Part shown: one piece after another, positions 14,993 through 40,810 of the stretch
Position numbering within the stretch: the stretch's first letter is position 1
Layout: each line of letters starts with the position of its first letter
DNA from: a virus
Strand: one strand, 5' to 3'
DNA: 42,304 nt
IMG/VR virus record: IMGVR_UViG_3300028563_000033
Span: 1 to 42,304 of that record
Translations under genes and position numbers: made by a program
Notes under the pieces: generated by a model
What the model saw: the letters and a program-made list of their open reading frames with translations, nothing else
The model's database searches: none
Told to the model about the DNA's origin: nothing

Positions 14993-15087
14993 CGCGGTCA
15001 GCCGATACTGAACCGCCGAACCCACCCATTCCGCTCCCGCTCGCCTCTGAAACAAGGGCGGGCTTGGGGCGTTAGGAGGACCGTGAC

Positions 15088-15330
15088 ATGACCCTATTGA
15101 CGCTCCACTGGATCGCTAGCACCCGCACTACCGCATATGCCACGTATTTTCGCTGGTTTTTCAAGCGCGAGCGAGGGCAGTACTACCGGGTGCGAATTGC
15201 GGACGCGCTAAATAAAACTGACGCGCCCTGGGAGCTCCTAGACCACGCTGGCGTGCCGTCCTCTGATCCGGTGTCACACGTCACCATGAGACACACTCAA
15301 CACACCCTATTTATGAAAGCTGTGCCATGA
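15088..15330 (+). CDS. Small basic hypothetical protein
   Basis: 80 aa, with an aromatic/basic middle (YFRWFFKRERGQYYRVRI). A strong TAGGAGG ribosome site lies 8 nt before the ATG, so high expression is expected. The stop overlaps the next start as ATGA. No family recognised. Confidence 0.6.
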   Translation: MTLLTLHWIASTRTTAYATYFRWFFKRERGQYYRVRIADALNKTDAPWELLDHAGVPSSDPVSHVTMRHTQHTLFMKAVP

Positions 15331-15587
15331 ACACTCACAACAACCAATTCGTGAGCGCTACCGCAATCGAAATCCGAAACAACTGCTGTCTCATCAAGTA
15401 CGGGCTCGACCGGATCATCGAGCGACTAGATCGAGTCGCCAGTACCGATGACTTGGAGCTGTGCCTCGAGGCGACAAACGAGCTCCTGCAGGTCACGGTC
15501 ATGGTCAAGGACAGCGTCGACCTGGCCAGTGGAGCGTCTGCTGTCACCTGCGCGAGCCCGACGTTGCGTCCAGAGGAAGCCCCATGA
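15327..15587 (+). CDS. Small helical hypothetical protein
   Basis: 86 aa. Residues about 10-65 form likely helices (CCLIKYGLDRIIERLDRV, then ELCLEATNELLQVTVMVKDS); the end is Pro/Ala-rich. It is coupled to both neighbours by ATGA overlaps (15327-15330, 15584-15587). Function unknown. Confidence 0.6.
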   Translation: MNTHNNQFVSATAIEIRNNCCLIKYGLDRIIERLDRVASTDDLELCLEATNELLQVTVMVKDSVDLASGASAVTCASPTLRPEEAP

Positions 15588-15751
15588 ACATCCAATACAT
15601 CCAGCCCGAAGCAGACATCACTGAACTGGAACGCAAGGAACGCGGTGCGCGCCTCGAATGTGATCGACTTGAATCTCAAATTTTTGCATCGATAGAGAGA
15701 CTATTGTCGGTACTCGAGCAAAATACAGGTAACCATGCCGATCAAGACTAA
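15584..15751 (+). CDS. Short coiled-coil protein
   Basis: 55 aa starting MNIQYIQPEADITELERK; most of it is one charged helix (ARLECDRLESQIFASIERLL), a likely coiled coil. The start is set by the ATGA overlap; its last 17 bp overlap the next gene. Function unknown. Confidence 0.5.
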   Translation: MNIQYIQPEADITELERKERGARLECDRLESQIFASIERLLSVLEQNTGNHADQD

Positions 15752-15953
15752 GAACCACATCCCCCGGGCCATCAGTGCAGCCCTAGACTGCCCCCCCGGT
15801 CACATCCTACAGATAGACGCCGAGAATATCGTACGCTCATCCCTGGACCGACACTTCACGCGCCGCGCTGCAGCTATCGAGCTCGGGTTCAGCGACGCGA
15901 CATTCAGCGAGCTGCTCAAACGCCACCCGGAACTGCTCAGTGAAGTAGAGTGA
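15735..15953 (+). CDS. Small putative HTH protein
   Basis: 72 aa. The C-terminal half (FTRRAAAIELGFSDATFSEL, then LKRHPELL) reads as a homeodomain-like helix-turn-helix, suggesting a small DNA-binding protein. It is the last rightward gene; its end overlaps the convergent membrane-protein gene by 17 bp. It could regulate late genes, but this is inference from position and motif only. Confidence 0.55.
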   Translation: MPIKTKNHIPRAISAALDCPPGHILQIDAENIVRSSLDRHFTRRAAAIELGFSDATFSELLKRHPELLSEVE

Positions 15954-16359
15954 CGAGCATCGGTCGCAACACGAGTGCGGCCGCTGCCATCATTCCGAGT
16001 AGCACCACGACAGCAGCAATCATGATCCCAGGACCTCGCACCGTGACCATGCCCGCGTGAACGCTGATTGGCCGCGTCACAACTGAGTTAGGCTCTTCAT
16101 CGCTCATGCTGCCCAGCTTGTCCCGTCGCGAGTGAGGTGGGGGCATATCGGATAGCATTGCCGGGCAGTCCGGGTCAGTGTCAGCCTCTTTGTCGCCCGT
16201 CCCATCAATCATGCACGGCAGACGACGGACCTGCTGAGTGAGTGACATGACTTGAGTCGCAAGGTGCAGGTTCGCTTTTTTCAACTCATGAAACGAGTCT
16301 TGCAGGTCAGTGATCGCCCGCAGCATCTTGCCTAAATCCACCATTTCATCTTGCGTCAT
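15937..16359 (-). CDS. Membrane protein, putative holin or lysis accessory
   Basis: 140 aa: an N-terminal coiled-coil part (LRAITDLQDSFHELKKANLH), a disordered Asp/Pro/Ser-rich middle, and one hydrophobic helix near residues 110-130 (GIMIAAVVVLLGMMAAAALVL) close to the C-terminus. It follows the cysteine endopeptidase gene with an ATGA overlap (16356-16359). C-tail-anchored or single-pass proteins in this place are often pinholins or spanin partners; the assignment rests on topology and neighbourhood only. Confidence 0.5.
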   Translation of the reverse strand: MTQDEMVDLGKMLRAITDLQDSFHELKKANLHLATQVMSLTQQVRRLPCMIDGTGDKEADTDPDCPAMLSDMPPPHSRRDKLGSMSDEEPNSVVTRPISVHAGMVTVRGPGIMIAAVVVLLGMMAAAALVLRPMLVTLLH

Positions 16360-16892
16360 GTCAAACCTTTCATCAGCACCGAGCAGTCAATCACGTGTTG
16401 CAGCGGCCGCCCCCAATTCCACGACCACGGACCGCGCTTGCTCGTGATCTCGTTATCGTGAGCTCCACCGCCGGCAAGCTCGACTTGTCTCGTGTCGTCA
16501 GGGTCACTGATGCAAAACGCTACATGATCATTCGGCTTGCCGTCGTTAGCCCAATGCAGCAACGAGCCAGCAGCAGGAGCCGCACCGGACGCCGAGTAAC
16601 GCACGAGGGCGCCCTTGTCGCGCGCAATCTGCAGCACCCAGGCAATTGCCATCCCGCTCTTGTACGGGCACCGCAGCAGCTCGTGATCGATCTGGCAGTG
16701 GCGCCAGACGCCGAGCGCGAACATGCCGCAGTTCGTCGTGATTCGAACGTCCTGCTCAGGATCATCGCCAGGAGCACATACGAGCTCGGCCAACTCATCA
16801 CGACGGTTCGAGAGCGAGCACCCGACGTAATCGCGTACCGTTCCAATGACAAGGCGTTGGTTCTCGCTCCAGATTTCGGTAGATTCGGTCAT
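16356..16892 (-). CDS. CHAP/NlpC-like cysteine endopeptidase (endolysin candidate)
   Basis: 178 aa. TTNCGMFALGVWRHC places a nucleophile-type Cys55 at the start of a helix and NDHVAFCIS supplies His123, with GSLLHW between them; this Cys...His order and spacing is that of the CHAP and NlpC/P60 peptidases that cut peptidoglycan stem peptides. VELAGGGAHDNEI follows as another strand region. There is no signal peptide, so release would need a holin, which fits the membrane-protein gene next to it. It is coupled to the tail spike gene by ATGA. Confidence 0.6.
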   Translation of the reverse strand: MTESTEIWSENQRLVIGTVRDYVGCSLSNRRDELAELVCAPGDDPEQDVRITTNCGMFALGVWRHCQIDHELLRCPYKSGMAIAWVLQIARDKGALVRYSASGAAPAAGSLLHWANDGKPNDHVAFCISDPDDTRQVELAGGGAHDNEITSKRGPWSWNWGRPLQHVIDCSVLMKGLT

Positions 16893-19249
16893 GTGTCGAC
16901 CGTGACTCTTACAGCATGGTTGGTTGAGTTTACGCGCACAATGGCTGTTTTGCCGGCTGCGACGGTAACGCCCGGATCACTTCCTGCGGTTGACACGATA
17001 AGCATTCCTGATGAATTTTCATTGGTCACGGTGAACTGAAGCCCAGGGAGTCCCGGTATTCCCATTACTGTTGCCGCTGTTCCGGAAGCAATTTCAATTG
17101 TTGAGTTGTAACACTCATTGAGTACCAGAAATCGATTGTTGCCACTGAATGCTAAAATCCCGCCCGTTTGCTGAAGGACAACTTTTCCGGAGCCGCTAAT
17201 GGAAATCGGAGTTGTCACCCCGCTCAAATCGCATCCAGGGCCAACCGTAACCGTACCCGCTGAGCAGTTGATGCCTAGCCCGCCGACGAGGACTAAATTT
17301 GTTAGCCTAACGTTGGCGTTCGTCTCTACTAGCAAGCAATACCCAGTCGCGCAGGTCGCAATTTTGCCGCCGTCAATCACAACTGTACCTGTTGCTGCGA
17401 TATGAATTCCATTTCCAGCGACCGTGTTGACGAGATCAACGTCCCGAAATATATTCGGGCCTGCCCCCGAAACGAATGCAAGTAGCGCGGAAGAGTCGTT
17501 TCTGGAACTATGATGTCTCCACTGCGACACGCTACATGACCCAGCTATCGTCATGCCTATTCGGTCGCCGTCGGTGTTGAGTTGCACGAACGAACTGCTC
17601 GTAGCTGCGGCGTCTATGTAGACACCAGTGTCCACGAAGGTATAACTGCAGCACGTGAACGAATTGGCGTCACTGTTCCGATCGACAACCAACCCATACT
17701 GTGAGTTTTTGGTTGACGAAAACCCTAGTGTCTTAGTTCTGTGAGCAGTCCACAGCCATTGCCCGACTGCGCTCCCGATGTCCGAGCATGCGACAAAGCT
17801 CATGTCGTAACATCCGTATGATGAGTCATCGAAGCTCTGTGCCACGTGGCCCCAAACACAATCGGATGTCGCGTTCGCTATTGCCATGGACGCGTAGCAG
17901 TCCATGAACGTGTAGCCCTGCAACCTAGCGTTTCTTACGCGGTTGTTGAACACTAGAGTCGTATCGTTCGACTGACAATAGAGAGCGTTGCTGCCAACGA
18001 AATATGGATTGTTGGGATATTCGAATGTTGAATTCGACAGGGTGCAGTCGCGACAAGCTACGTCGAATCCGACCGAGGCTGTACCGCCGGAATATGGAAT
18101 CTGGTCGTTAGTTAGCCTGTAATTTAGCCCATTTACGGCAACGCGCTCTGACTGCGTGAACTCAAGCAGCTGATTAGAGAATCCGGTTACGTTGGCTCCC
18201 GTAAAGTCGAGCTGTATATCTTTGGGATGAATGCTAGAACATTCGACACTGTCACCAATTGCGTGGGACCAAAAAATAGACCGATTCAGCAACACGGCAA
18301 CATATGTCGGAGTGCCAGCAGTTATCCCTAGAGCAGTGTTTGCGGTACCTGATCCAATCGTAAGCGAAGTTAAGGCCGAGATTAGAAGTTTGTTCGATGA
18401 AGTCCCGCCAATTCCAACCTGTATCAAAGTTGACCACTTTGCTACAATAGCTGCAATGAAAGCGGACAGTGACGCCGTGTTAGTCGTGCCGGACAAAGTG
18501 AGAGTTTGTGCCCCGGCACCGTCAACATTCAACACAAGCGTCAATCCGTTGAGCGTCCCGGCGCCGCCATAGAGAGCGCTCGCAGTTACGTCGGTAGTCC
18601 CTATAGTCGCAACACCTAGGCCGCGAATATCGTAAGAGCATCCGCTAACCTCTGGAGTGCTGCCGACATATTGTTCCACCCAAGCAACGTCGCCGACATG
18701 CGGAGTCAGTGACCATGGGTTCACTATGATCACGTTGTTGTTTGCCGCAAGGCTGGCGGGAGGCGAAGCGAGCGTGCTTCCTGGATTCAGTTCGGCGCAA
18801 CCGTACAGACCAAACCGATAATGCATGTTGAATCGAATATTCGATCCTGGGGATACGCTCAGTTGTTGATTGCTGAATATATTTGGAGTGGAATTTGGAA
18901 TAGCAGATGTGCCGCTTGTGTCGCTTGTATTTGGCGGGCTTTTTAGCTGAATCGCGTTACCTGCCGCAATGGTGATTGATCTACCGGAACTTGCTCCCGA
19001 CAGCAGTGAGGAGGCTAAACCTGGTAAATCGTCCTGTGTGCCGTCAATCGCGACATAGGGCAATTTGAGCCCAGCTGTTGACACAACGCCCGTTGCCGTA
19101 CGGAGGCCTGAGGAAACACGGTCGTCAGAGAGACGAGGGTCGTTTCCGTTAGTTCCTACGCCCGTCGGACCCGGCGGCCCCGGTGGCCCCATTGGACCCC
19201 TGAGACCTCGTATCCCCTGCGACCCGCGCTCGCCTCTTAGATTTGTCAT
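16889..19249 (-). CDS. Tail spike/fibre with collagen-like N-terminus
   Basis: 786 aa. The first 35 residues contain Gly-x-x triplets (GERGSQGIRGLRGPMGPPGP, then PGPTG), a collagen-like trimer stem. The rest is Ser/Thr/Gly/Asn-rich and beta-structured, with repeated turns such as NSTFEYPNNPYF and VTVGPGCDLSGVT, as in right-handed beta-helix spikes that bind or cut host polysaccharide. It lies at the distal end of the tail operon, where receptor-binding proteins are found. DNA here looks more AT-rich than its neighbours, suggesting exchange. No catalytic site can be named. Confidence 0.75.
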   Translation of the reverse strand: MTNLRGERGSQGIRGLRGPMGPPGPPGPTGVGTNGNDPRLSDDRVSSGLRTATGVVSTAGLKLPYVAIDGTQDDLPGLASSLLSGASSGRSITIAAGNAIQLKSPPNTSDTSGTSAIPNSTPNIFSNQQLSVSPGSNIRFNMHYRFGLYGCAELNPGSTLASPPASLAANNNVIIVNPWSLTPHVGDVAWVEQYVGSTPEVSGCSYDIRGLGVATIGTTDVTASALYGGAGTLNGLTLVLNVDGAGAQTLTLSGTTNTASLSAFIAAIVAKWSTLIQVGIGGTSSNKLLISALTSLTIGSGTANTALGITAGTPTYVAVLLNRSIFWSHAIGDSVECSSIHPKDIQLDFTGANVTGFSNQLLEFTQSERVAVNGLNYRLTNDQIPYSGGTASVGFDVACRDCTLSNSTFEYPNNPYFVGSNALYCQSNDTTLVFNNRVRNARLQGYTFMDCYASMAIANATSDCVWGHVAQSFDDSSYGCYDMSFVACSDIGSAVGQWLWTAHRTKTLGFSSTKNSQYGLVVDRNSDANSFTCCSYTFVDTGVYIDAAATSSSFVQLNTDGDRIGMTIAGSCSVSQWRHHSSRNDSSALLAFVSGAGPNIFRDVDLVNTVAGNGIHIAATGTVVIDGGKIATCATGYCLLVETNANVRLTNLVLVGGLGINCSAGTVTVGPGCDLSGVTTPISISGSGKVVLQQTGGILAFSGNNRFLVLNECYNSTIEIASGTAATVMGIPGLPGLQFTVTNENSSGMLIVSTAGSDPGVTVAAGKTAIVRVNSTNHAVRVTVDT

Positions 19250-19291
19250 TGCTGCTCGCCTTCCTAGTTACTGTGGTGGTTGTTTGGTTGC

Positions 19292-20401
19292 TTACTGAAC
19301 GGGTTGAACGAAGTCAGCGTCGAGGTCTGGACTGAAGAGCTGCGCTGATGTGAGCAGGTGATAACTGCAATGTGTTCCAATGCAGACGCCCCAATGGTCC
19401 GGCAGTGCGTCCCAGTGATTCTGCACCAACCAAGTATCGGTCGGCACATTGTATCCAAATAATCCCTCGGCGTGTCCACCGTCAACAGGACCAGTGAGAG
19501 ACATGTTTCCGCAACGGTCGGGAGTCATCATCCCGTCGAGCCAATTCATGCCAGCGATAACTGGACCCGATTGAATTGCAACCTTGATCGCCGCCATGCC
19601 GTTGAGCACTTGGCAGCCCTTGGCAAACCCGTTTTGCACAAGCCATTTGCAGCCGCTCAACGAATCGCTACCGGTATCCTCTTGTGGCCACGAGCCTGGA
19701 ACGTCATCGTTGGCGGTGATCCACTTGTATGCATTGAGCCCGGCAGTGTTGAGCAGCGCCTGAGTTGCAAACGATAGCGTCCGAGGTTTTGCGCAAGCTA
19801 TATCAAGCTGGGTAAAGGCCTCGCACGCTCCCACTCTCCCTTGGTTGCCGGCGAACGGGTTGTTCGACAGCCACCCAACACTCGATACTGCAGTAGTGTC
19901 CACGCCCCTGAATAGGCCAAACGTGGTCACCTTGTGCCGTGGTTTGAGTGACCGTCGAATCTCATCCAGTCGCTGCGGGTTAGGTCCCATCAATGTTGGC
20001 GGGTTACACGTGGGTTGCACAAATGGGTTAGTCGCCGCAGGTGCAGGCGGCGGTCCAGCATCAACGACAACGGTTGCCGTCGGAACTGGAGTCGGTATCG
20101 GTGTTGGTGCAGGGGTTGGTTTGCACGCACTCAGTGCACAGCCGAGCCACATGACCTTTGCGATTGAATTGGTAGCCACGGTGCCTTTGCCTTCTGCTGC
20201 CTTCTGGACGGCGCAACACGGGTCATTGTCAACGGACATTGTCATTGGCGTTCGTTGCTCGACCCAAAAAACAACGAACGTACAGAGCGCAATCACTGCC
20301 GCAACTACTGCCCCGATCACCCGCTTGTCACTCAGCGCGGTCAGTAAGTTTACCATCAAACCGCGTTCAGCGGCCTTGACGTCATCGTCTGAGATGTTCA
20401 C
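19292..20401 (-). CDS. Membrane-anchored papain-like cysteine protease
   Basis: 369 aa from the GTG at 20401 (GTGA overlap with the lipoprotein stop; an upstream frame to 20551 is a shadow). Residues about 29-47 (IGAVVAAVIALCTFVVFWV) form one membrane helix, a Pro/Thr linker spans about 94-125, and the C-terminal domain has the papain triad: Q187 and C193 in NQGRVGACEAF, H310 in DGGHAEGL, N329-W330 in QNHWDALPDHWG. It would act outside the inner membrane. A C1-type peptidase is unusual in a phage tail/lysis cluster; host envelope proteins are plausible substrates. The linker is preceded by a lipobox-like LSAC at residues 90-93. Confidence 0.75.
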   Translation of the reverse strand: MNISDDDVKAAERGLMVNLLTALSDKRVIGAVVAAVIALCTFVVFWVEQRTPMTMSVDNDPCCAVQKAAEGKGTVATNSIAKVMWLGCALSACKPTPAPTPIPTPVPTATVVVDAGPPPAPAATNPFVQPTCNPPTLMGPNPQRLDEIRRSLKPRHKVTTFGLFRGVDTTAVSSVGWLSNNPFAGNQGRVGACEAFTQLDIACAKPRTLSFATQALLNTAGLNAYKWITANDDVPGSWPQEDTGSDSLSGCKWLVQNGFAKGCQVLNGMAAIKVAIQSGPVIAGMNWLDGMMTPDRCGNMSLTGPVDGGHAEGLFGYNVPTDTWLVQNHWDALPDHWGVCIGTHCSYHLLTSAQLFSPDLDADFVQPVQ

Positions 20402-20667
20402 TTGCGCACCTGTACAACTTGCATCGTTGCCTTGGGATAGAGCACTTGCAGTTGCTGCTGCTGCTCCTGAGCCGCAGACTCGGTCGTTGCGCAACCGAGG
20501 ATTACCGCCTGCAACCCGAGAGGCGCCAGGGGCTGCTTGACCTTGATGCAAAACTGGTACACCTGACCCTCAGCGTCCGTTGCAGCGACTTGCTTGATTG
20601 ACGCGCCGCACGCACTCAGCAGAGGGGCAAAGAGCAGCGCAAACAGGGTGACTTTTATACTATTCAT
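20398..20667 (-). CDS. Small phage lipoprotein
   Basis: 89 aa with a lipoprotein signal peptide: MNSIKVTLFALLFAPLLSAC, lipobox LSAC with Cys20. The mature part ends in a Gln-rich helix (ESAAQEQQQQLQVLYP). It directly precedes the membrane-anchored protease and overlaps it by GTGA. An outer-membrane spanin (Rz1-like) role is possible from size and location, but the Pro-rich content usual for Rz1 is missing. Confidence 0.7.
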   Translation of the reverse strand: MNSIKVTLFALLFAPLLSACGASIKQVAATDAEGQVYQFCIKVKQPLAPLGLQAVILGCATTESAAQEQQQQLQVLYPKATMQVVQVRK

Positions 20668-20682
20668 GCTTCTATCTTCCTT

Positions 20683-22572
20683 TCAACTCGCATAATTGCC
20701 AGCGCCGATGATGTCCACAATGACCGCGCAGTCCGCGGGGATTCCGCTGCTGCTTATGTTGTAGACGGTTATTGTGATTGTTCCGTTGGCTGTACCGCTA
20801 AGACCAAACGCAACCGAGACGGTCGAGTTCGATCCGGAGCACATGCCTGTCAGTGCAGTGAGATCTACGGAAACTGCCCAGCTTCCACCAGCGCCAACGT
20901 CATAGATTCGTAAAATCGTGCCGCGATAGGTCCAATCAAAAGCCTGTCCTGTTGCGTTTGAGTCTCTACCAATGACTCGCACGGTGATTGAAGCGTCGGA
21001 ACATCCCCGAACCCCAGTGTCGCCGGTCGGGGCCAGCACGTTGCCTTTCCACACCGACTCAGTGAACCCGAAACTACGAGTTGTATTGTACGGAACCACC
21101 CCCTCAAAGTGCTTGGAGTGCTGCTGGTGAGTCCCTTCGCTGTTGACAACCATTGTCCTGTCGCGCCACGTCAAATTACCGCTAGCGTCCGACTGCGCAA
21201 TGAATCCAGCGGCGGCACCGGTTCGCACCCTCAGCGTAGGCGTATCGACATACGCGCTCGGATCTGTAATTCCGCCCCAGCCAGTGAACCCCGTGTAATC
21301 CATCCAGAAGCGCGGGTGGGTGGGGTCGGATTGATTCGCGAATACCAACGCGCCGCGGATTCCTCCTGTAGTGGAGAGGCTGTTGGCGTGGATATCCCAG
21401 CTAGAGTAAAAACTACCGCCGGCATCACTGAGCACAATACTCGTGTTCCCCGAAGTCCCGTTGATCGTCAGTGCCGGAGTTGCGCTAGCCGCGTTCACAC
21501 TAACTGGCTCGGCAACGGTAACCAGTGAACCGTTATCCGTGATCGACGAGTTACCTAGACCTCCAGAGGTGAACACGGCAACCTTGCCCGCTGTGCCACT
21601 AATGGCGTCAAGCTTGGTCTTGTCTGCCGCTGACATTGAGCCTGCGGCAGAGTCGGTGGCTGGCGAAAGATCTATTTCTGTCCCTGTCTTCGTGAGTGGA
21701 GCGGCTACTGTTATTTCTGTAGCCCCAGAAAGTTGCGCGAAATGCAGAGTGTTGGTGCCCACCACATCGAATCCGCTGGTGTTGGTGCAGTACCAACCTG
21801 TACCGACCGTGCGCACCATGAAATACGCGCCGGCTGCAGCTATCCCCACAGCCATGTCACTGGCGAGAGTCCAGGCGCCAGAGCCCGTCAGATACAACCC
21901 GTTCCCAGTGCTCGTTAGCTGAGCCGTGGCCAACACGCGCATGTTGGGGTTGCTCAGAACAACACCGTCGGAGCTAGTCTTATCTAGGCCAGTTAGTGCA
22001 AAATTCGCAGTTAGTACGCCATCAATGACAGGGTGCGGCGCCAGCCCTTGACGGGAGGCATCGACGTACGCCTTATTGGTGGCAGCCGTCGGATCGGTAG
22101 GCGCACCGATCTGAGTAAGTACCTGACCATTCAAGCTCACCGATCCAGTCGCGCCAGCAAGCGCGCTGTGTACAGCGGAAAATGGCAATGCGTGTATATG
22201 ATCCGCGCCAGCGAAGTCCGCGCTTGTCCCTGCCTCATTGGTTGTTCCGATGTCGGAAGGTGTGCCACGAGTGCAGGGGTGCAGATGGTTCGCCAGCGCC
22301 ACACTATCACCGGACCCCGTGTCACCAGCACTGCCAACGACAATCGCCACCGGATCGCCAGCGGTGAATGTGACGTCGTCTAAATTGACGACCGCAGTCC
22401 CATATTTCTCCCCGCCTGCCGGAGGCTCGTACGTTGCTACCACGCTCCCGCCAAGCAAATTGATCTTGTCCACCGGAGCCGGCAGAGCCACGCCATTGCT
22501 CTCGACCTGTATCGCGCCGGCTCCGCCTTGCAGTAATCGATCGAGATATCCCGCGCCAGATGATTCGCTCAT
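20683..22572 (-). CDS. Large tail fibre protein
   Basis: 629 aa from ATG 22572 (ATGA overlap with the upstream gene). It contains ATNKAYVDASRQGLAPHPVI near residue 180, the motif of phage fibre stalks, and SAADKTKLDAISGTAGKV near 320, another recurrent fibre repeat (ADKTKLDGI type). The C-terminal 150 residues, Gly/Ser/Thr-rich and beta-structured, are the likely trimeric tip. It binds the host surface. A separate chaperone gene is not obvious. Confidence 0.8.
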   Translation of the reverse strand: MSESSGAGYLDRLLQGGAGAIQVESNGVALPAPVDKINLLGGSVVATYEPPAGGEKYGTAVVNLDDVTFTAGDPVAIVVGSAGDTGSGDSVALANHLHPCTRGTPSDIGTTNEAGTSADFAGADHIHALPFSAVHSALAGATGSVSLNGQVLTQIGAPTDPTAATNKAYVDASRQGLAPHPVIDGVLTANFALTGLDKTSSDGVVLSNPNMRVLATAQLTSTGNGLYLTGSGAWTLASDMAVGIAAAGAYFMVRTVGTGWYCTNTSGFDVVGTNTLHFAQLSGATEITVAAPLTKTGTEIDLSPATDSAAGSMSAADKTKLDAISGTAGKVAVFTSGGLGNSSITDNGSLVTVAEPVSVNAASATPALTINGTSGNTSIVLSDAGGSFYSSWDIHANSLSTTGGIRGALVFANQSDPTHPRFWMDYTGFTGWGGITDPSAYVDTPTLRVRTGAAAGFIAQSDASGNLTWRDRTMVVNSEGTHQQHSKHFEGVVPYNTTRSFGFTESVWKGNVLAPTGDTGVRGCSDASITVRVIGRDSNATGQAFDWTYRGTILRIYDVGAGGSWAVSVDLTALTGMCSGSNSTVSVAFGLSGTANGTITITVYNISSSGIPADCAVIVDIIGAGNYAS

Positions 22573-23243
22573 GTCCCTGCTCCAAAGTGGATGATGCTGC
22601 CCCACGCCTGGTTAGCCGTTCCCGTTGTTTCTTCGTTGGGCCAATTGTATTTAGGAGTCGGATCGACCAGTCCGTTGCATACGCTGTAGATTGACAGATT
22701 CGAAGTGGTATTCGCCGACCACGCCCACAGACTCATTGGGACATTGTGCGCGGCGGGCGCAGTGAACAGTAACGACGCCTGGAATTCGAACGGGACAGCG
22801 GTTCCTGACGTGTTGGCGATGGACTCAAAAACTCGAGTATAAGAGGCGCCTGCTATCCGCAGCTGCACGTACGTCAACGACAGGACCGTATCGACCGACA
22901 CAAGATTGATAGGTCCGACATTTACCAGCAGTTGATCGCCGATCTCTACATTCGGACCAACGACGGCTAACGGCGAGCCACTCACGTCGAATATTTGGCG
23001 TGGGGTGTTGTTTACCGTCTGCGGAGACGGGCCCGTGTGAGTGTTGTCCGAGATGCTTTTGCTGAGCCCCGCATAGAAGCCCTTGGCCACTAACGCAGCG
23101 GTCAAGCGTGCATCAATATTAGCCGTTCGATCGGCGAGATCTTCGGTGGCTGCAGCAGAGTTCACTTCGCCGCGCACGTCACCGTCCTCAATCGCGCGAA
23201 CGTTTGCGGGGTAGTTTGCTGGGTTGCCGGGTATATTGATCAT
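22569..23243 (-). CDS. Tail fibre-connecting structural protein
   Basis: 224 aa starting MINIPGNPANYPANVRAIED. The N-terminal part (VNSAAATEDLADRTANIDAR) is helical, as in fibre-attachment proteins; the rest is beta-rich (VGDQLLVNVGPINLVSVDTV-like strands). It lies between the tail protein I-like baseplate gene and the large fibre with ATGA overlaps on both sides, so it probably joins the fibre to the baseplate or is a short second fibre. Confidence 0.55.
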   Translation of the reverse strand: MINIPGNPANYPANVRAIEDGDVRGEVNSAAATEDLADRTANIDARLTAALVAKGFYAGLSKSISDNTHTGPSPQTVNNTPRQIFDVSGSPLAVVGPNVEIGDQLLVNVGPINLVSVDTVLSLTYVQLRIAGASYTRVFESIANTSGTAVPFEFQASLLFTAPAAHNVPMSLWAWSANTTSNLSIYSVCNGLVDPTPKYNWPNEETTGTANQAWGSIIHFGAGT

Positions 23244-23995
23244 TGGTAGACCCTGTCTCCCGCCAGGTACGCAGCGTGCGGGTTACGATGACTCATCACG
23301 TTCCACGTGCCGTCGGGCTGTTGCGCGTTCCACGTGGTTTCATTCCACACCACAATGGTGTGCATGTGCCGAATGTTGCCGGAGCCCTGCGAGCGAATCA
23401 GACTCGCGATGCCTTGCACCGTACCGTACACGGTACCCGTGAGAGCATCGCCAATCGGACCGATCCCCCACGTGCCGCCGTCTCCGCACCTTCCACCGGC
23501 GGAACCGAACACACCATCGTCGGTCCAGAACGGTGGCTCATAGATGATCAACCAGAACCGAGCCGGGAGGTTCAGACCATCCCAATTCCACGCCATTGAG
23601 CCAATCGTTACCGTGCCGGAGTTCCAGTCCCAGTAGCGGCCACCGTTGAACACGACCCGCATGTGCAGCGGGAAGGGTGTACAGTACGCCGCTACTTGCT
23701 GCATCTGTCCCAACGGGTGCCCGAGTAGTCGCTTAGAATCGAGCCACAGCAGCAGCCGGGCGACTATCTGATCGTCCGTCTCATTGGGACCGCGCAGCAC
23801 GTCACGGTCACGGCACAGCTGCGGAATAGCGGTCGGATTGAACCCAGGGAAACGCGAGGTGAGCGCTTGCTTTGCTGCTTCGCCGAACGCGTCAGCCACC
23901 AGAATCATCGAGTAAATGAAGCGCGCGCCCCAAAACCCCTTGAGCCACCGAGGTAGGTCCTTGAAGATCGAATCGCGGAAGGTAAGGAGCTCCAT
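23240..23995 (-). CDS. Baseplate protein, tail protein I-like
   Basis: 251 aa. The N-terminal half (FKDLPRWLKGFWGARFIYSM, then RGPNETDDQIVARLLLWLDS) and the position right after a gpJ-like protein fit the P2 gpI/Mu gp48 group of baseplate wedge proteins. The C-terminal half is Trp/Gly/Asn-rich (YWDWNSGTVTIGSMAWNWDG, PDGTWNVMSHRN) and probably faces the fibres. It shares a TAATG junction with the upstream gene. Confidence 0.7.
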   Translation of the reverse strand: MELLTFRDSIFKDLPRWLKGFWGARFIYSMILVADAFGEAAKQALTSRFPGFNPTAIPQLCRDRDVLRGPNETDDQIVARLLLWLDSKRLLGHPLGQMQQVAAYCTPFPLHMRVVFNGGRYWDWNSGTVTIGSMAWNWDGLNLPARFWLIIYEPPFWTDDGVFGSAGGRCGDGGTWGIGPIGDALTGTVYGTVQGIASLIRSQGSGNIRHMHTIVVWNETTWNAQQPDGTWNVMSHRNPHAAYLAGDRVYQ

Positions 23996-25182
23996 TAAGT
24001 CCTCACCACAATATTGACCTGCGCAGTCACGTCACCGAGCACTGGGACCCCGTTGACAGGGCAAGACACATCGGCTGCAAGATTACTGATCACAGTGTGG
24101 AACGTGTCATCGGGAAACACCGTCTTGATAGTGCCGCGAATGTCGTCCACAAATACCCAGCCAACATCGGGAGCGCTCGGTAGACGGTCACCGCCAATTG
24201 TGCGAGTAGCAAACGACTCTTGAAGAGCCAGCAAGATGTCCGCCTGGCAATCGCGGCTAGACTTACCGACGCTCGAGTAAATCCAGACTTGGTATACGAC
24301 ATTGATCGCAATGTTGACCGTGCTGATGATGGCTATCGTGCCTCCTGGCGGAACAACGTGCGTATACAGGTAGTAGCTAAGCGCTCCGAGGTCGGTGCTC
24401 GTGTCGTTCACGTTGCCAGGGACATTCCCCGAATCGGTGGCGACATAGATATGACACGACGCATCCCCGGGACCCGCGACCACTCGAGTGCGGGTCACTC
24501 CGATGGGACTGCCATCAAGACGCGTTGCAGTCTTCGCGTAGTACGAATAGGCGCCGAATGGTCCGTTATCGGACAGCGTTGCCAGCTTCTCTTTGCAGCG
24601 TTGCTCGAGGGCCGTATCACTCTCAGCGTCGCTAGCCACGAGCGAACCGGCGTTGCTACAAGTGACCTTGAGCATCCTCGGACTGACAATCGTGTCGATT
24701 GCGCCCGGGCCCGAGTTTGATGCGCTGCCCGCCTCGAGCGCCTTGAAGTTCAGTGACTGTGAACCCGCGCCACTCAATGACAGCGGCTCCGTGTTCACGT
24801 ACTGCTTGCCCGTCGTAGAATTCTTGACGGTCACCTTGCCGGCGGCAAACGAGTACACGCCGCCGCCAGCATTGGTGAGCGTGACGGGATTGCTCGCGAA
24901 CGTCGCTGGGTTGCGGTCAACGTTGTAGACGTACAGAGCAACCGCGGTTTTCCACGAGCCTGAACTGAGCCCCAAGAACCCCAGGTTGCACAAGTTAGCA
25001 ATCAGCATCGATAGCGGCGACAGGATGACAGCCACCGCAGCAACGATCGTTCGAACGACTGCGCCCGGCTTCCAGGTGGTCGTGTTGACTCCCACCCTTC
25101 CCATCAGGTTGTAGACGCACTGCTTGCACTGCGCGACCGTGAGACCCTGCGCTAGCTCGCTAAGAGGAATAAATGCACTCAT
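23995..25182 (-). CDS. Baseplate J-like protein
   Basis: 395 aa, the wedge protein of contractile tails (P2 gpJ/Mu gp47 family). The typical pattern is seen: hydrophobic N-terminal helices (LSPLSMLIANLCNLGFLGLS), SNAGSLVASDAESDTALEQR followed by KEKLATL, and the C-terminal TVNIAINVVYQVWIYSSVGK region. It bridges the gp25-like protein and tail protein I. ATGA overlap with the upstream gene. Confidence 0.88.
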   Translation of the reverse strand: MSAFIPLSELAQGLTVAQCKQCVYNLMGRVGVNTTTWKPGAVVRTIVAAVAVILSPLSMLIANLCNLGFLGLSSGSWKTAVALYVYNVDRNPATFASNPVTLTNAGGGVYSFAAGKVTVKNSTTGKQYVNTEPLSLSGAGSQSLNFKALEAGSASNSGPGAIDTIVSPRMLKVTCSNAGSLVASDAESDTALEQRCKEKLATLSDNGPFGAYSYYAKTATRLDGSPIGVTRTRVVAGPGDASCHIYVATDSGNVPGNVNDTSTDLGALSYYLYTHVVPPGGTIAIISTVNIAINVVYQVWIYSSVGKSSRDCQADILLALQESFATRTIGGDRLPSAPDVGWVFVDDIRGTIKTVFPDDTFHTVISNLAADVSCPVNGVPVLGDVTAQVNIVVRT

Positions 25183-25715
25183 GACGCCATGTCCTCCGCG
25201 AGCTGGCTCGCGCTCGTTAGTGTCTCGGTCAAACTGTAGGTCTTCCCGCTGTACAGCTCACCATCGATCGAAATGTCAAAGGCATCGGTTCCGGTGTCGT
25301 CCTTGCCGAGGTACGTGATCACGCACTGACAGGACTTTACTCGGTCGTCTTTCAAACACTCCGCAGCGAGCAAGTCTTGCTCGGCCATGATCTCCACCAT
25401 GGTCATGTCAGCGCTTAGAAACGCCATCACGTCACGGCCATAGTCCGGATCCTCACCGAGGTAGCTCAATGTCCCATGTTGCGTAGTGATGCGACGTAGC
25501 AGCGCTTGCGATACGCCCTCCGGAGAATTCTCGTCAACCTCGTCGAAGTTCGCCGTCAGATCCGTGTCACACGACAGATCGCGACCGTAGCCGAGATCAC
25601 CCGTGGGAGCAGCAACGATCACCGCTGGGACGCCATCAGGTTCGATGATGAGTCCCGCCTGCACGTCCGCGACGTACTGGTCAGTTGCCGCCTGGATGTC
25701 GTCGAGCAAAGTCAT
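25179..25715 (-). CDS. Baseplate wedge, gp25/gpW-like
   Basis: 178 aa. GRDLSCDTDLTANFDEVDEN followed by SPEGVSQALLRRITTQHGTL and YGRDVMAFL matches the gp25-like wedge family, whose members start tail sheath polymerisation. It precedes the gpJ-like gene as in P2 and Mu. The C-terminal 80 residues carry an extra beta domain (FDISIDGELYSGKTYSLTET). Confidence 0.75.
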   Translation of the reverse strand: MTLLDDIQAATDQYVADVQAGLIIEPDGVPAVIVAAPTGDLGYGRDLSCDTDLTANFDEVDENSPEGVSQALLRRITTQHGTLSYLGEDPDYGRDVMAFLSADMTMVEIMAEQDLLAAECLKDDRVKSCQCVITYLGKDDTGTDAFDISIDGELYSGKTYSLTETLTSASQLAEDMAS

Positions 25716-26191
25716 TTGACGAACACCTTTCCCATGGCGGTAAAAGTCCCAGGGTACCGCGTCGCGAACACGAGCGCGTTGATGTGGTCCGTCCCGCTCC
25801 CGCCTGGAAGACCAGCTCCAATTGCGCCGTTGAGTTCACCCGCGGCACTGGCGGCAGCGCCGTCGTACACGAAGGCCTCGACACCAGCCGCACCGAAAGC
25901 CGTTTGCAAGTCGAGAATGAGCTGCAACTGCGCCTGCAGCTGGGCAATGACGCTCGCGTTGGCCGCGACGTTGAACTTCACGCTGGGGGGCTGCAATGCG
26001 AGCGCCGCAGCAACGCGCCCCACAGCAGCAACGCGAGCGCCAAGACTTGGCAGCTTCACTGCCAGGGCACCGCTCACTCGCAGCGCGCCAGCAAGCTGAC
26101 CTCGCAATCGTGGAATGACGCCTGCGAGCATCGATACCATGGTCGGCATCAGTCCACCAACAGAGTACGAGCCAAGGTAACGGACGGTCAT
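25712..26191 (-). CDS. Hypothetical baseplate protein
   Basis: 159 aa, Ala/Leu/Gly-rich, with a helical middle (VIAQLQAQLQLILDLQTAFG) and a C-terminal strand region (INALVFATRYPGTFTAMGKV). Wedged between the hub/spike gene and the gp25-like gene with ATGA overlaps on both sides, so it is very probably a tail component. The first 60 residues are unusually Ala-rich and repetitive (RGQLAGALRVSGALAVKLPS). No family recognised. Confidence 0.6.
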   Translation of the reverse strand: MTVRYLGSYSVGGLMPTMVSMLAGVIPRLRGQLAGALRVSGALAVKLPSLGARVAAVGRVAAALALQPPSVKFNVAANASVIAQLQAQLQLILDLQTAFGAAGVEAFVYDGAAASAAGELNGAIGAGLPGGSGTDHINALVFATRYPGTFTAMGKVFVK

Positions 26192-27477
26192 TCGATCGCC
26201 CCCTTGTCCGAGGCTGACAGAATGTAACCAAGCAGCGGATCGGCCTTTGGCGGCAAGATGGTCGGAGGGGTCGGATCATCCACAATCGTCACGACGTCCG
26301 AGAATGAACACAAGTAAGGAACGCCAGCCATCACCACCGGAACCGTCCCCGTGGGTGACCCCAGTGCCAGCGCAGGAGCCGTGTACGCGCCCGCCATTGG
26401 CCCCAGACTCAACGTGATAACAGTCCCCGGTCCACCTGAAGTGATCAGATCGGACATGCGCGCGATACCCGAGACCTTATCCGGGTCACCCGCTGGCCAC
26501 CCCGACACATATGGCATCGTACAGTCGCCCTCGTCGAACGCGACGCGAACGATCGTCCCCTCGTCAGGAGTGGACACGGCACTGGCAATGCCAGCGACTT
26601 GAGAGACAGGCAGCACATCCGGGAGTCCCGATATCGGACGCACCGCCTGAAGTTGTAACCGCTTATCCGAATCGACCGAAACGACTCGGTAGCGGTAGGT
26701 GCCGTAGAGTCGCTTTGACTCCCGCTGCGCCAGCAACGCAGCAACGGCACGGCCCAGGCGCGACTGTGACAACTCATCGCCACCAGTCCACGCAAAGACG
26801 CGGCACTTGCCGGAGCCAGTCTCTTTATCCACCTCGACCGTCAGTCGCATCTCACGGACCGTTTGAGGCTCGGTGAGCCGGTCCTTGAGAATCGCACCGA
26901 CCCACAGACTTGCCGGGTCATCGACCGCCAGCTCAGCTATCCGAGTGAGAGGCGAGTAGTTCAGCAGGTTGTACGAACCCGCGGTCGGTTCAAAAGTAGT
27001 GCGCTGCCCCGCCTGCGTGACGCCCTGCGTGTCCACCCACCAGATACGACCATCGCCAAGGGCCTGTTCTAGAACACTGCTTGCCGTGGCAATGCGGCGG
27101 ACGAAGTGGGTTTCTAGGGTGGGCTCGGCAGGATCGAAGGAACCCAAGGTCTCGCCGGCAATCTGAGCCGCGTCGAGCGCCACCGCTTCGGCACTGACAC
27201 CAGCGTCGTCCGCGTAGTCCTGCGGCTCACACGGGTTGCCCCAGCCACCAGCGCCGCCCACGATGCGCAGGGAGCGCGCCAGGGCAAACGAGCCCGTGTA
27301 CGATGGCAGCACGGTGCCGTGGAGCTCGAGGGAGCCCAGCCGCACCACCACAGCGCCCGACAGGTCGTCCGTCGTATCGTCGAGCACGGCATCAACGAAC
27401 CACGCCCCGCCCCATGGCACGAACAGCTCAAGCCGCGTGCAGTGCTTCTCACCGATCGAAACGAAGAAGTCAGTCAT
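26188..27477 (-). CDS. Tail hub/spike protein, gpD-gpV-like fusion
   Basis: 429 aa. Residues about 1-280 are hub-like (phage gpD/gp27 type: beta-rich, LELFVPWGGAWFVDAVLDDT). From about 285 an OB-fold of the gp5/gpV kind follows: VSQVAGIASAVSTPDEGTIV, then RVAFDEGDCTMPYVSGWPAG, and a short Pro/Ala-rich end. It closes the tail tube and carries the membrane-piercing tip. In P2 hub and spike are separate genes; here they appear as one, as in some Mu-like tails. Confidence 0.75.
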   Translation of the reverse strand: MTDFFVSIGEKHCTRLELFVPWGGAWFVDAVLDDTTDDLSGAVVVRLGSLELHGTVLPSYTGSFALARSLRIVGGAGGWGNPCEPQDYADDAGVSAEAVALDAAQIAGETLGSFDPAEPTLETHFVRRIATASSVLEQALGDGRIWWVDTQGVTQAGQRTTFEPTAGSYNLLNYSPLTRIAELAVDDPASLWVGAILKDRLTEPQTVREMRLTVEVDKETGSGKCRVFAWTGGDELSQSRLGRAVAALLAQRESKRLYGTYRYRVVSVDSDKRLQLQAVRPISGLPDVLPVSQVAGIASAVSTPDEGTIVRVAFDEGDCTMPYVSGWPAGDPDKVSGIARMSDLITSGGPGTVITLSLGPMAGAYTAPALALGSPTGTVPVVMAGVPYLCSFSDVVTIVDDPTPPTILPPKADPLLGYILSASDKGAIE

Positions 27478-28064
27478 CGCGGAGCCCCCGGTGCGCTGGG
27501 TGCGAGTTTTCCGACCTGGCCCGGGTCAAGTAACTGATCGGTCAAATCCTTGATGCGCTTGTCGAGCGGGTCGAGCGGGCTATCTTGCGAGGCCTCAAGC
27601 TTCGCAGACGCCGCACGAGGCTTAGTCACTATCTGCACGAACTCGATGGGCACGATGTAAACGCCCTTGGTACCCGCCGGCTCCTCTTGGGGTTCGTTCT
27701 CCACCATGCACGACGTAATGCCGAGCGGCACCAATTGCGGGTGCCAAATGGTCATCGCCAGCGCCGGATCGTAATTGGTGCTCGATGCACTATTGACCGC
27801 ACCACGACGCGGTACCGTGTTGATCAAGACTCGCCACGTCTGCCAATCTTCCCAGTCCTGAACGCTGGCAAGAATCAAGTTCGTCTTGAAGTGAGCCAGC
27901 TTGCGACCAAAAAACACCACGAACGCAAAGTCGATTCCGTACCCGCGACGCTCATCAATTGCGCGAGCGATAGAGGCGCCCACCGGTCCGACACACACGC
28001 CCGGGCTCCAATTGTTGGCCAGCTTGAACTTGTTGACCGGGTTGCGGATAGGGTCCCAGCTCAT
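27474..28064 (-). CDS. Tail tip/LysM-type connector
   Basis: 196 aa starting MSWDPIRNPVNKFKLANNWS. VFFGRKLAHFKTNLILASVQ and VYIVPIEFVQIVTKPRA resemble the beta-rich tail connector (Mu gp43-like/DNA circularisation N-domain) proteins found between tape measure and hub. The C-terminal 45 residues are helical and Pro-rich. ATGA overlaps link it to both neighbours. Confidence 0.6.
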   Translation of the reverse strand: MSWDPIRNPVNKFKLANNWSPGVCVGPVGASIARAIDERRGYGIDFAFVVFFGRKLAHFKTNLILASVQDWEDWQTWRVLINTVPRRGAVNSASSTNYDPALAMTIWHPQLVPLGITSCMVENEPQEEPAGTKGVYIVPIEFVQIVTKPRAASAKLEASQDSPLDPLDKRIKDLTDQLLDPGQVGKLAPSAPGAPR

Positions 28065-29995: not shown

Positions 29996-30206
29996 GCAGG
30001 CCCCCCACAGCAGACGCTAGGCCTTGCATGCCTTCAGCGACTTTATGCAGTGATTGGATTGCGTCTGCCACGATTAGAGCTCCGACCTGTTGCCGAACCC
30101 AACGCTCATCTTCTAACGACGGCTCGATGCCGAAGAATTCGAGCAGGTATTCGGCTGCTACCGCTGGGTTCTCAAACGCGTCCTGACGAGCCTCCGCTAT
30201 TTTCCC
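29988..30206 (-). CDS. Predicted -1 frameshift extension of tail chaperone
   Basis: The tail chaperone frame ends TTG-GGA-AAA-TAG, containing the heptamer GGGAAAA (30200-30206) in the X-XXY-YYZ register. One base back, the frame is open for 70 codons, from ATA-GCG-GAG down to a TGA at 29988-29990, 8 bp inside the tape measure gene. The encoded sequence (IAEARQDAFENPAVAAEYLL, then EFFGIEPSLEDERWVRQQVG) is helical and protein-like. This is the gpG/gpGT arrangement of lambda and many other long-tailed phages. The fusion product would be about 207 aa. Confidence 0.85.
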   Translation of the reverse strand, partial: GKIAEARQDAFENPAVAAEYLLEFFGIEPSLEDERWVRQQVGALIVADAIQSLHKVAEGMQGLASAVGGLHG

Positions 30207-30610
30207 AACAGGTTTGACTGGTCAACTGCAACGAGCAAACTCGCTGCGTTGATCACAGCGTCGCGAGCGTTGGGGAAGTCCAGATACATCTTCTCAGCTT
30301 CAACCGCAGTCGGGTACTCAACCGCCACCGCGCTGAATTCAGACTGTAGCTCTTCGGTCAAGTTTCGATTCGACGTTGCGGTCGAGATCTTGTTGTACAC
30401 GACTGCCGGCGCCTTCTTCACTGCGATGAAACGCCCGTCAGGAAGGAACACAACTGCGAGGTTGATACCGAGCGTCTTGCCCGTGCTCTCCTCGATCTCG
30501 CCCAGCTTGATCTCGCTGTCGATGCGCGTTTCCTTCACGGCCGCGTCGTATGCCTCGACCTTGTTCTTCCGCTTCTGCCTAATCTCTGCCAGTTGCTCTT
30601 GCTTGTTCAT
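30197..30610 (-). CDS. Tail assembly chaperone
   Basis: 137 aa, analogous to lambda gpG / Mu gp41: a mostly soluble protein that coats the tape measure during tail tube growth. The N-terminus is helical and basic (EIRQKRKNKVEAYDAAVKET), followed by a beta stretch (GINLAVVFLPDGRFIAVKKA) and a helical C-terminus (RDAVINAASLLVAVDQSNLL). It lies between tail tube and tape measure and ends in a frameshift heptamer. Confidence 0.85.
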   Translation of the reverse strand: MNKQEQLAEIRQKRKNKVEAYDAAVKETRIDSEIKLGEIEESTGKTLGINLAVVFLPDGRFIAVKKAPAVVYNKISTATSNRNLTEELQSEFSAVAVEYPTAVEAEKMYLDFPNARDAVINAASLLVAVDQSNLLGK

Positions 30611-30640
30611 CGGGGTCTCCTTTGTTCACACACGCTTCTG

Positions 30641-34609: not shown

Positions 34610-34629
34610 TGGCTGTTCAGATTGGCTGC

Positions 34630-40606: not shown

Positions 40607-40810
40607 TCAACACCCGCACAGCATGAAAACTGACGCTGAATCGCTACCACCACACCCAAGCCCCCTCATACACCCGCGTAGCACACCGTCTGCCTGGTAC
40701 CAGTGCGACGACTTCTTGGCTGCGCACGCCGACGGGCAGCAGTAAGCCTTCACGTCAGCCTGGAAGCATGTCGAGAGTATCAGCCACGAAGCTATAAGTG
40801 CGGCGTTCAT
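40607..40810 (-). CDS. Small secreted Cys-rich protein
   Basis: 67 aa. A hydrophobic N-terminus (MNAALIASWLILSTCFQADV) looks like a signal peptide, followed by a short mature part with several Cys (AYCCPSACAAKK, GCMRGLGCGG). The start overlaps the lipoprotein stop as ATGA. A disulphide-bonded periplasmic or outer-surface peptide is plausible. Confidence 0.55.
   Translation of the reverse strand: MNAALIASWLILSTCFQADVKAYCCPSACAAKKSSHWYQADGVLRGCMRGLGCGGSDSASVFMLCGC

What the first reader, a model, noticed from the sequence alone, without database searches (positions are those of the whole stretch)
19292..20667. Lipoprotein plus membrane-anchored papain-like protease in the tail/lysis cluster
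A C1-type cysteine protease with complete Gln-Cys-His-Asn pattern is tethered by one membrane helix and a Pro-rich linker, and is translationally coupled to a small lipoprotein. Such a pair is unusual in phages. It could be a new lysis or envelope-remodelling system acting where spanins normally do, or a superinfection or host-interaction factor. No Rz/Rz1 pair is otherwise recognised.
Basis: partly seen in the sequence, partly recalled or inferred. Interest (0 to 1): 0.75.

Follow-up and report, generated by a model that had tools for sequence, protein, structure and literature searches.

The report
Membrane-tethered papain protease in phage lysis
A bacterial virus carries a papain-type protein-cutting enzyme that looks tethered to the host's cell envelope and is paired with a small lipoprotein; relatives in other phages sit beside genes that burst the host cell, so it may help the virus get out by cutting envelope proteins.

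Summary
Window 20667-20398 (minus) encodes an 89-aa lipoprotein. It overlaps (GTGA) a 369-aa ORF (20401-19292) whose C-terminal half is a papain-fold domain: Gln187, Cys193, His310 and Asn328 are invariant in 62 chosen sequences, and the model matches Xylellain (Z 18.1).

The protease belongs to a phage family (phrog_16701) that is mostly soluble, frequent in actinophages and often near endolysin genes. In other IMG/VR phages it lies in compact cassettes: 2TM holin-like protein, lipoprotein(s), protease, wall hydrolase (L097 CHAP, L204 GH25). In L101 it is an N-terminal lipoprotein with a linker, followed by a 2TM protein and CHAP. The window's CHAP lies 2.4 kb downstream, beyond a tail-fibre gene.

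Best reading: a lysis-module protease tethered to the envelope, cutting envelope proteins. Lysis membership is supported by comparison only. Substrate, membrane and a spanin-replacing role are inferred. In a 98%-identical sister phage the cassette is swapped with the tail fibres, which keeps a receptor-masking role open.

The parts
20398..20667 (-). LipA: 89-aa small lipoprotein (signal MNSIKVTLFALLFAPLLSA / C20-G21)
   Evidence: ORF; strict lipobox scan; homologous to the LipA part of L092 14524-14976 (34% identity, E 2e-10), which itself has relatives in L096 and L097; no direct hit in the phage collection
19292..20401 (-). 369-aa protease ORF (GTG start; GTGA overlap with LipA stop)
   Evidence: phrog_16701 E 2.7e-18
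20258..20320 (-). transmembrane helix, about aa 28-48
   Evidence: Kyte-Doolittle 2.7 over 19 aa; AF2 helix 26-49
20120..20179 (-). possible internal GTG start (aa 75) and lipoprotein signal MATNSIAKVMWLGCALSA / C93-K94
   Evidence: sequence; weak SD-like AGAAGG 9 nt upstream, -3.4 kcal/mol, comparable with CHAP -3.5 and coil-TM -3.8; inferred by analogy with L101, whose protease has an N-terminal lipobox
20024..20122 (-). Pro-rich linker, aa 94-126 (12 Pro)
   Evidence: low pLDDT
19295..19906 (-). papain-fold (C1-type) peptidase domain, about aa 166-369; Q187, C193, H310, N328
   Evidence: alignments; model; Foldseek; VIA
16889..19249 (-). collagen-like tail fibre between the pair and CHAP
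   Evidence: phrog_6320 tail fiber E 7.7e-4; Collagen below cut-off
16356..16892 (-). CHAP-type hydrolase (putative endolysin), homologous to CHAP of L097 and L101
   Evidence: PF05257 E 5.1e-5, 24.1 bits, just below cut-off 26; 61% identity to the L097 CHAP that directly follows the protease there
15937..16359 (-). 140-aa protein with a C-terminal TM helix, possible holin-like
   Evidence: KD 2.81; phrog_1296 holin only E 0.29, not significant
20683..22605 (-). upstream protein, tail/fibre-like by position, whose C-terminal part is exchanged in the sister phage
   Evidence: PHROG matches are an unknown family (phrog_27782 E 4.5e-15) and 'head decoration' (phrog_2647 E 5.4e-12); boundary at 21212

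Best explanation
The pair belongs to a phage lysis cassette. Late in infection LipA and the protease are made together from overlapping genes. The protease is exported by its TM helix or, from the internal GTG, as a lipoprotein anchored at Cys93, and the Pro-rich linker lets the papain domain reach substrates in the envelope. When the membrane is opened and the CHAP hydrolase cuts the wall, the protease cuts envelope proteins that would still hold the cell, such as outer-membrane or cell-wall proteins, so that virions get out. Shown: gene overlap, lipobox, linker, papain fold (model), intact catalytic residues, and the same parts next to 2TM holin-like and wall-hydrolase genes in other phage contigs. 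Inferred: expression time, export route, which membrane, substrate, and any replacement of spanins. My estimate is about 0.75 for membership in a lysis module and about 0.35 for proteolysis of an outer layer as its specific task.
For: (1) L097: [2TM+LipA]-GTGA-LipB-ATGA-C1 protease-ATGA-CHAP, with no tail fibre in between and, judged by eye, a different structural module. L096 has the same first three genes; its contig ends 687 b after the protease. (2) L101: the protease itself has an N-terminal lipoprotein signal and a TGG-repeat linker, then a 2TM protein with Pro-rich tail, then CHAP; it is the closest of the six proteins compared with the window's (35% over 164 aa, E 1.4e-27). (3) L204: 2TM-ATGA-lipoprotein-ATGA-protease-ATGA-GH25 (PF01183 E 8e-28): same layout with an unrelated wall hydrolase. 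(4) L020: 2TM segment fused to the protease; L192: 2TM protein just before it. (5) Named phages: 5 of 10 distinct genomes that I picked from the 33 records have it among lysin/holin genes (Morgana, Lilbeanie, Sixama, GMA2, Mufasa8). (6) PHROG scan of 90 neighbour ORFs at 47 non-redundant loci: 14 of the 25 families shown (of 84) are endolysin or amidase; 1 of 25 shown (of 147) for 88 distant ORFs. (7) Papain fold and catalytic residues.
Against: 5 of the 10 named phages have the protease away from lysis genes (Sycamore, Shaeky, Wakanda, Quesadilla, GX15bay). The Pfam version of the neighbour test is weak (Amidase_2 in 3 of 90; wall-related PG_binding_1 in 2 and SLT in 1 of 88 distant ORFs). 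CHAP relatives in L102 and L103 have no C1 protease next door. In the window a fibre gene lies between protease and CHAP, and the sister phage L092 exchanges fibres and this pair together while CHAP stays. Most relatives found are soluble and the named ones nearly all infect actinobacteria, so the ancestral target cannot be an outer membrane of the proteobacterial kind. Host of the window phage unknown; Lys at +2 of C93 tends to mean inner membrane in M. xanthus (8 of 12; PMC3222651, passages). No propeptide or inhibitor was recognised that would hold back an exported protease before lysis. The 2TM calls are by eye or simple hydropathy. The internal start is unproven and its SD is weak.
Confidence: 0.55

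Rival explanations
1. Auxiliary endolysin: the papain domain cuts peptides of the wall itself, together with CHAP, and the anchor only keeps it near the wall.
For: It sits directly beside lysin A genes in Gordonia phages; in Morgana the preceding gene matches the C-terminal part of an endolysin family (phrog_317 E 8.7e-12). BetterKatz authors list a cysteine protease-like gp29 as a predicted endolysin (PMC4982276, passage). Leptospira prophage authors call a cysteine protease beside a holin pair a putative endolysin (PMC8705779, passage). BFVD matches include an 'Endolysin' (Gordonia phage OneUp, E 5.7e-5) and a 'Lysin A' (Mycobacterium phage Indlulamithi, E 1.6e-4).
Against: The family is of the C1 (papain/cathepsin) type by profile and fold, known for protein substrates (recalled), and the window, L097, L101 and L204 already have a CHAP or GH25 hydrolase. 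BetterKatz gp29 was not compared with the window.
Confidence: 0.2
2. Receptor-masking or receptor-cutting pair: lipoprotein (as T5 Llp does, recalled) and tethered protease hide or destroy the phage's own surface receptor, and are therefore inherited with the matching tail fibres.
For: Between the window and sister phage L092 (97.9% identical over 21212-35184, 94.1% over 15039-16879) the end of the upstream tail/fibre-like protein, LipA, protease slot and collagen-like fibre are exchanged as one block.
Against: In L097 and L101 the same cassette is not beside fibre genes, and in L204 it is followed directly by GH25 (judged from ORF translations); five named actinophages have the protease with lysin A/holin. 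L092 keeps a LipA homologue but with a different, diverged protein in the protease slot.
Confidence: 0.12
3. Virion protein: the protease rides on the tail and cuts surface proteins during entry.
For: The genes lie inside the tail region of the window, between a tail/fibre-like gene and a collagen-like fibre.
Against: Signal sequences/TM at the N terminus do not suit a virion protein; in L097 and L101 the gene is away from tail genes.
Confidence: 0.06

Closest known systems
phrog_16701 'peptidase' / cysteine proteases of Gordonia, Streptomyces, Arthrobacter and Mycobacterium phages
   Same: Same papain-like domain with Gln-Cys-His-Asn; most share the D-T-G-S motif; in five of ten genomes read the gene lies among lysis genes
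   Different: The ten read are short soluble proteins in which no lipobox or TM was found
Xylellain (3ois), papain and cathepsins (family C1)
   Same: Fold and catalytic residues
   Different: 11-24% identity over the aligned part among the PDB rows shown; no recognised propeptide; phage cassette context
Two-component spanins (lambda Rz/Rz1)
   Same: A membrane-anchored protein paired with a small lipoprotein near lysis genes; Pro-rich segment behind a lipobox, as in Rz1 (PMC6139136, passage)
   Different: The partner here is an enzyme; no Rz-like coiled-coil i-spanin recognised
Leptospira TA-TA prophage lysis module (PMC8705779)
   Same: Predicted cysteine protease next to a holin/antiholin pair in a diderm host (passage)
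   Different: Its sequence was not compared here; named a putative endolysin, no lipoprotein tether reported in the passages read

Membership tests
Peptidase family C1 (papain-like) | papain fold | tested here: met
   AF2 model; Foldseek 3ois E 1.5e-7; VIA Z 18.1, rmsd 3.6 A, 209 aligned
Peptidase family C1 (papain-like) | catalytic Gln, Cys, His, Asn in order | tested here: met
   Q187, C193, H310, N328; invariant in 62 of 62 chosen rows
Peptidase family C1 (papain-like) | Pfam Peptidase_C1 model above cut-off (a convenience test, not part of the family's definition) | tested here: not met
   window protein: 0 Pfam families up to E 1; of 4 relatives scanned, L014, L020 and L192 pass 20.7 bits and L002 does not
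Peptidase family C1 (papain-like) | peptidase activity | not testable with these tools
   none
phrog_16701 | profile match over the domain | tested here: met
   E 2.7e-18, aa 149-326 of the tested fragment, i.e. about 161-338 of the ORF
Bacterial lipoprotein (LipA) | N-terminal signal with lipobox | tested here: met
   MNSIKVTLFALLFAPLLSA/C; lipidation not tested
Bacterial lipoprotein (protease) | lipobox near the translated N terminus | tested here: inconclusive
   lipobox LSA-C93 exists but needs the internal GTG start; N-terminal in relative L101
Unimolecular spanin | N-terminal lipobox and C-terminal TM helix | tested here: not met
   TM (28-48) precedes the lipobox (93); C-terminal part is an enzyme domain
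Two-component spanin | i-spanin with coiled coil plus o-spanin lipoprotein | tested here: inconclusive
   LipA resembles an o-spanin only by signal (phrog_3198 E 0.015, aa 1-25); no i-spanin recognised by the TM and lipobox scan; no coiled-coil predictor run
Phage lysis cassette | adjacent holin-like and peptidoglycan hydrolase genes | tested here: inconclusive
   met in relatives L097, L101, L204 (2TM proteins by eye); in the window CHAP is present but one fibre gene away and no holin was recognised with significance
Phage lysis cassette | needed for lysis | not testable with these tools
   none

The most novel reading that the evidence does not exclude
Some phages of diderm hosts carry out the outer-layer step of lysis by proteolysis: a lipoprotein-tethered papain protease, with a partner lipoprotein, takes the place of spanins. 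Holin-like, lipoprotein, linker and protease segments are shuffled and fused freely within one compact cassette that moves between unrelated phages.
Probability: 0.27. Interest if true: 0.85.

Novelty: new variant of a known kind. Interest (0 to 1): 0.58.

Why it matters
How phages without recognisable spanins get through the outer layer is, as far as I know, an open question (recalled). A tethered protease in a 2TM-lipoprotein-protease-hydrolase cassette, present in phage contigs whose other genes look different (by eye), offers one concrete, testable answer. It also gives a lead on what the 'cysteine protease' genes of many actinophages do. In my literature searches (titles, abstract starts and the passages named in the report) I saw cysteine proteases called putative endolysins (PMC4982276, PMC8705779) but no lipoprotein-tethered protease or such a cassette; subscription journals are largely missing from that library.

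Tried and rejected
Dead ends. Single-protein scans with the window protease or LipA found no relatives in viral contigs, nor with the protease in genome contigs. A scan with the baseplate protein found only the sister record L092, and one with the window's CHAP alone only that record again. Folding without an alignment gave a useless model (pLDDT 41.7). LipA has no tblastn match in the phage collection up to E 1. Genome contigs with A6 (121 relatives, best 80 kept) gave many actinobacterial loci and weaker matches in other phyla; the only one I opened, L134 (Holophagaceae), did not show a lysis cassette around it. CHAP relatives L102 and L103 (512-kb and 116-kb contigs) have no C1 protease next door.

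Considered and rejected or lowered. (a) Frameshift or assembly error joining a TM gene to the protease: not excluded by a second copy, because no close relative of the ORF was found; but in-frame fusions of a membrane segment to a following cassette gene recur in L092, L096, L097 (2TM+LipA) and L020 (2TM+protease). (b) That the L092 protein in the same slot is an ordinary member of the family: BLAST E 0.034, profile comparison E 0.0036 with probability only 9%, no meaningful PDB match (best E 1.6), no hit of the window protease in its record. It aligns at the Cys and GGH but lacks the Gln and Asn, so I call it a possible diverged relative only. It is similar to a ctsHD2 protein annotated 'cysteine protease and beta' next to an amidase. 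(c) I had recalled that Lys at +2 sends M. xanthus lipoproteins to the matrix; the paper says inner membrane, so I dropped it. (d) The strict SD-plus-lipobox scan around 89 non-redundant loci gave 3 hits in 276,568 b near the protease and 3 in 841,873 b elsewhere. One of the 3 near hits is L101 itself and the scan misses L092, L096 and L097, so I do not lean on it. (e) Papers opened without use: PMC9862828 and PMC10318531 (passages).

Rows dropped before counts. One search kept 80 of 212 relatives and 80 of 238. The neighbour test used 47 non-redundant of 80 loci, with a crude ORF caller whose upstream and downstream neighbours are on the coding strand in only 27 of 43 and 27 of 47 cases. Of 160 rows, 155 pass my simple Q-C/H/N motif test; L031, L044, L084, L218, L253 do not. 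A7 used 62 rows chosen by hand (window, L101, L097, L096 and 58 of the 80 loci); loci whose domain start my regex placed wrongly or not at all, and near-duplicates, were left out, among them L031 and L044. Hydropathy flagged also L022 and L031/L218; I judged by eye that these stretches lie upstream of the likely start. The 10 named phages were picked by me as distinct among the 33 records.

Full report
What is there. The window is an unnamed virus record of 42,304 bases of a contractile-tailed phage: weak tail-sheath matches, a baseplate wedge protein, a tape-measure-like protein, a head maturation protease. It has no near DNA match among 50,697 phage records (query window 15000-32000). On the minus strand, a tail/fibre-like gene by position (22605-20683; PHROG matches 'unknown' and 'head decoration') is followed by a small lipoprotein (LipA, 20667-20398), a 369-aa protease ORF (20401-19292), a collagen-like fibre (19249-16889), a CHAP-type hydrolase (16892-16356) and a 140-aa protein with a C-terminal TM helix (16359-15937). 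The protease's GTG start overlaps LipA's TGA.

The enzyme. The protease matches phrog_16701 'peptidase' (E 2.7e-18) and 33 phage records by tblastn, 32 of them actinophages by name (Gordonia 15, Streptomyces 13, Arthrobacter 2, Mycobacterium 2). Q187, C193, H310 and N328 are invariant in 11 of 11 and 62 of 62 aligned sequences; the 62 were chosen by hand. A profile of the 11 finds cathepsin B and other papain-family chains (best E 8e-13). With the 62-sequence alignment AlphaFold2 gives block-mean pLDDT of 84-94 from residue 171 to 330, lower on both sides. The model's best solved match is Xylellain (Foldseek E 1.5e-7; VIA Z 18.1, 3.6 A, 209 residues). The window protein alone hits no Pfam family; of four relatives scanned, three pass the Peptidase_C1 cut-off (L014, L020, L192) and L002 does not. 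So the papain fold and an intact active site are well supported; activity is not shown.

The anchor. A GTG at aa 75 would start a 295-aa lipoprotein precursor. Its SD-like leader is weak (-3.4 kcal/mol) but close to those of CHAP (-3.5) and the coil-TM gene (-3.8); the ORF's own GTG has -6.2 and LipA -5.6. If only the long form is made, the lipobox segment would follow a helix that, by eye, looks N-in, which is awkward for lipoprotein processing. That is why I favour an internal start, but it is an inference.

Sister phage. L092 (47,433-base record) is 97.9% identical over window 21212-35184 and 94.1% over 15039-16879, but the stretch between is replaced, apart from 96 bases around the start of the collagen-like fibre and 29 bases just before LipA. 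In its place L092 has one ORF joining a 2TM holin-like segment to a LipA homologue (34% identity to the window's LipA, E 2e-10), then a second lipoprotein (LipB) with TGG repeats, then a 250-aa protein with a GDC...GGH pattern, then its fibre. That protein is at best a diverged relative.

Cassettes elsewhere. The L092 LipA as bait found L096 and L097. Both have [2TM+LipA]-GTGA-LipB-ATGA-C1 protease. In L097 the next overlapping gene is a CHAP protein 61% identical to the window's, and the cassette stands between terminase-like and portal-like genes, a different structural module (judged from the sequences by eye). L096's contig ends 687 bases after the protease; CHAP is found in 4 of the 5 records searched (window, L092, L097, L101) but not in the L096 record. 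The CHAP alignment as bait found L101: an N-terminal lipoprotein signal (MKSKLLLLATALLVCFGA/C), TGG linker and C1 protease in one ORF, then a 2TM protein with a Pro-rich tail, then CHAP. The same scan found CHAP relatives L102 and L103 without a protease next door. A last scan found L204: 2TM protein, lipoprotein, C1 protease and GH25 hydrolase (PF01183 E 8e-28), each overlapping the next. L192 has a 2TM protein before the protease and L020 has a 2TM segment fused to it. The 2TM calls are by eye or simple hydropathy; no Pfam holin model reached significance in those scanned (Phage_holin_3_6 E 0.32-0.33 for L020).

How general. Of 160 rows kept by two scans (89 non-redundant at 70%), hydropathy and lipobox scans show a convincing fused anchor only in L101/L188 and L020/L201; the rest look soluble. 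In 10 distinct named phage genomes that I picked and read, the gene lies among lysin/holin genes in 5 and not in 5. Among 90 immediate neighbours at 47 loci, 14 of the 25 PHROG families shown (of 84) are endolysin or amidase; among 88 distant ORFs 1 of 25 shown (of 147) is. The same test with Pfam is weak (Amidase_2 3 of 90; distant ORFs include PG_binding_1 2 and SLT 1 of 88). The ORF caller was crude, so these are indications, not rates.

What it most likely does. The recurring partners (a membrane-perforating candidate, one or two lipoproteins, a wall hydrolase) make a lysis module the best home for the protease. In actinophages it is soluble and would leave with the endolysin; in the window and L101 it carries its own tether. 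A task that fits both is cutting envelope proteins at lysis. In a diderm host this could do what spanins do. Against this, no outer membrane is shown for the unknown host: the only five phage records matched by the baseplate protein are Myxococcus phage Mx4 (two records) and Meiothermus/Thermus phages, which is only a hint. Lys at +2 would suggest inner-membrane retention if the host were a myxobacterium (PMC3222651, abstract and passages). The block exchange with fibres leaves a receptor-masking role possible; the fibre-free contexts of L097 and L101 and the hydrolase-linked L204 argue against it.

Prior knowledge. A 'cysteine protease-like' gp29 is listed as a predicted endolysin in Gordonia phage BetterKatz (PMC4982276, passage; sequence not compared here). 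A predicted cysteine protease next to a holin/antiholin pair is called a putative endolysin in Leptospira prophages (PMC8705779, passage). A survey of Gordonia rubripertincta lysis cassettes (PMC9671378, passages only) has no occurrence of 'cysteine' in its main text, and the spanin survey (PMC6139136, passages only) none of 'protease'. I found no description of a lipoprotein-tethered papain protease in a phage in searches of an open-access library.

Verdict. Real, not chance, and not ordinary, but built of known kinds: a new, tethered variant of a known phage protease in a recurrent lysis-type cassette.

Noticed in passing
window 40807-41259 (-): A second lipoprotein gene with TGG repeats (MRFLAFALCLVA/C...), like the LipB linkers of L092, L096 and L097, far from the protease, on the other side of the portal-like gene.
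   Followed up: partly
L092 14524-14976; L096 7812-8264; L097 7794-8246: A 2TM holin-like segment ending in KDF[ND]VTG is fused in frame to the signal peptide of lipoprotein LipA; no usual internal start fits well. How such a fusion is processed is unclear.
   Followed up: partly
L092 15410-16162 and L094 7869-8600: A protein family with a G-x-C...GGH pattern but no Gln/Asn, in the protease slot of L092 and directly after an N-acetylmuramoyl-L-alanine amidase in myovirus ctsHD2, annotated 'cysteine protease and beta'.
   Followed up: partly
L102 (512-kb contig) and L103 (116-kb contig): CHAP homologues (48% and 44%) of the same small family in much larger phage contigs without the protease; L102 carries the same metagenome number (3300028654) as the sister phage L092.
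   Followed up: no
L014, L016, L017, L019, L080: Several soluble relatives carry a C-terminal Pro-rich tail and a short W...KGL end, perhaps a wall-binding tail.
   Followed up: no
L002 6618-7001 (Morgana gp29): The small gene before the Morgana protease matches the C-terminal part of an endolysin family (phrog_317 E 8.7e-12), so lysin A seems split into several genes; similar small genes precede the protease in Lilbeanie, Sixama and GMA2 but were not scanned.
   Followed up: partly
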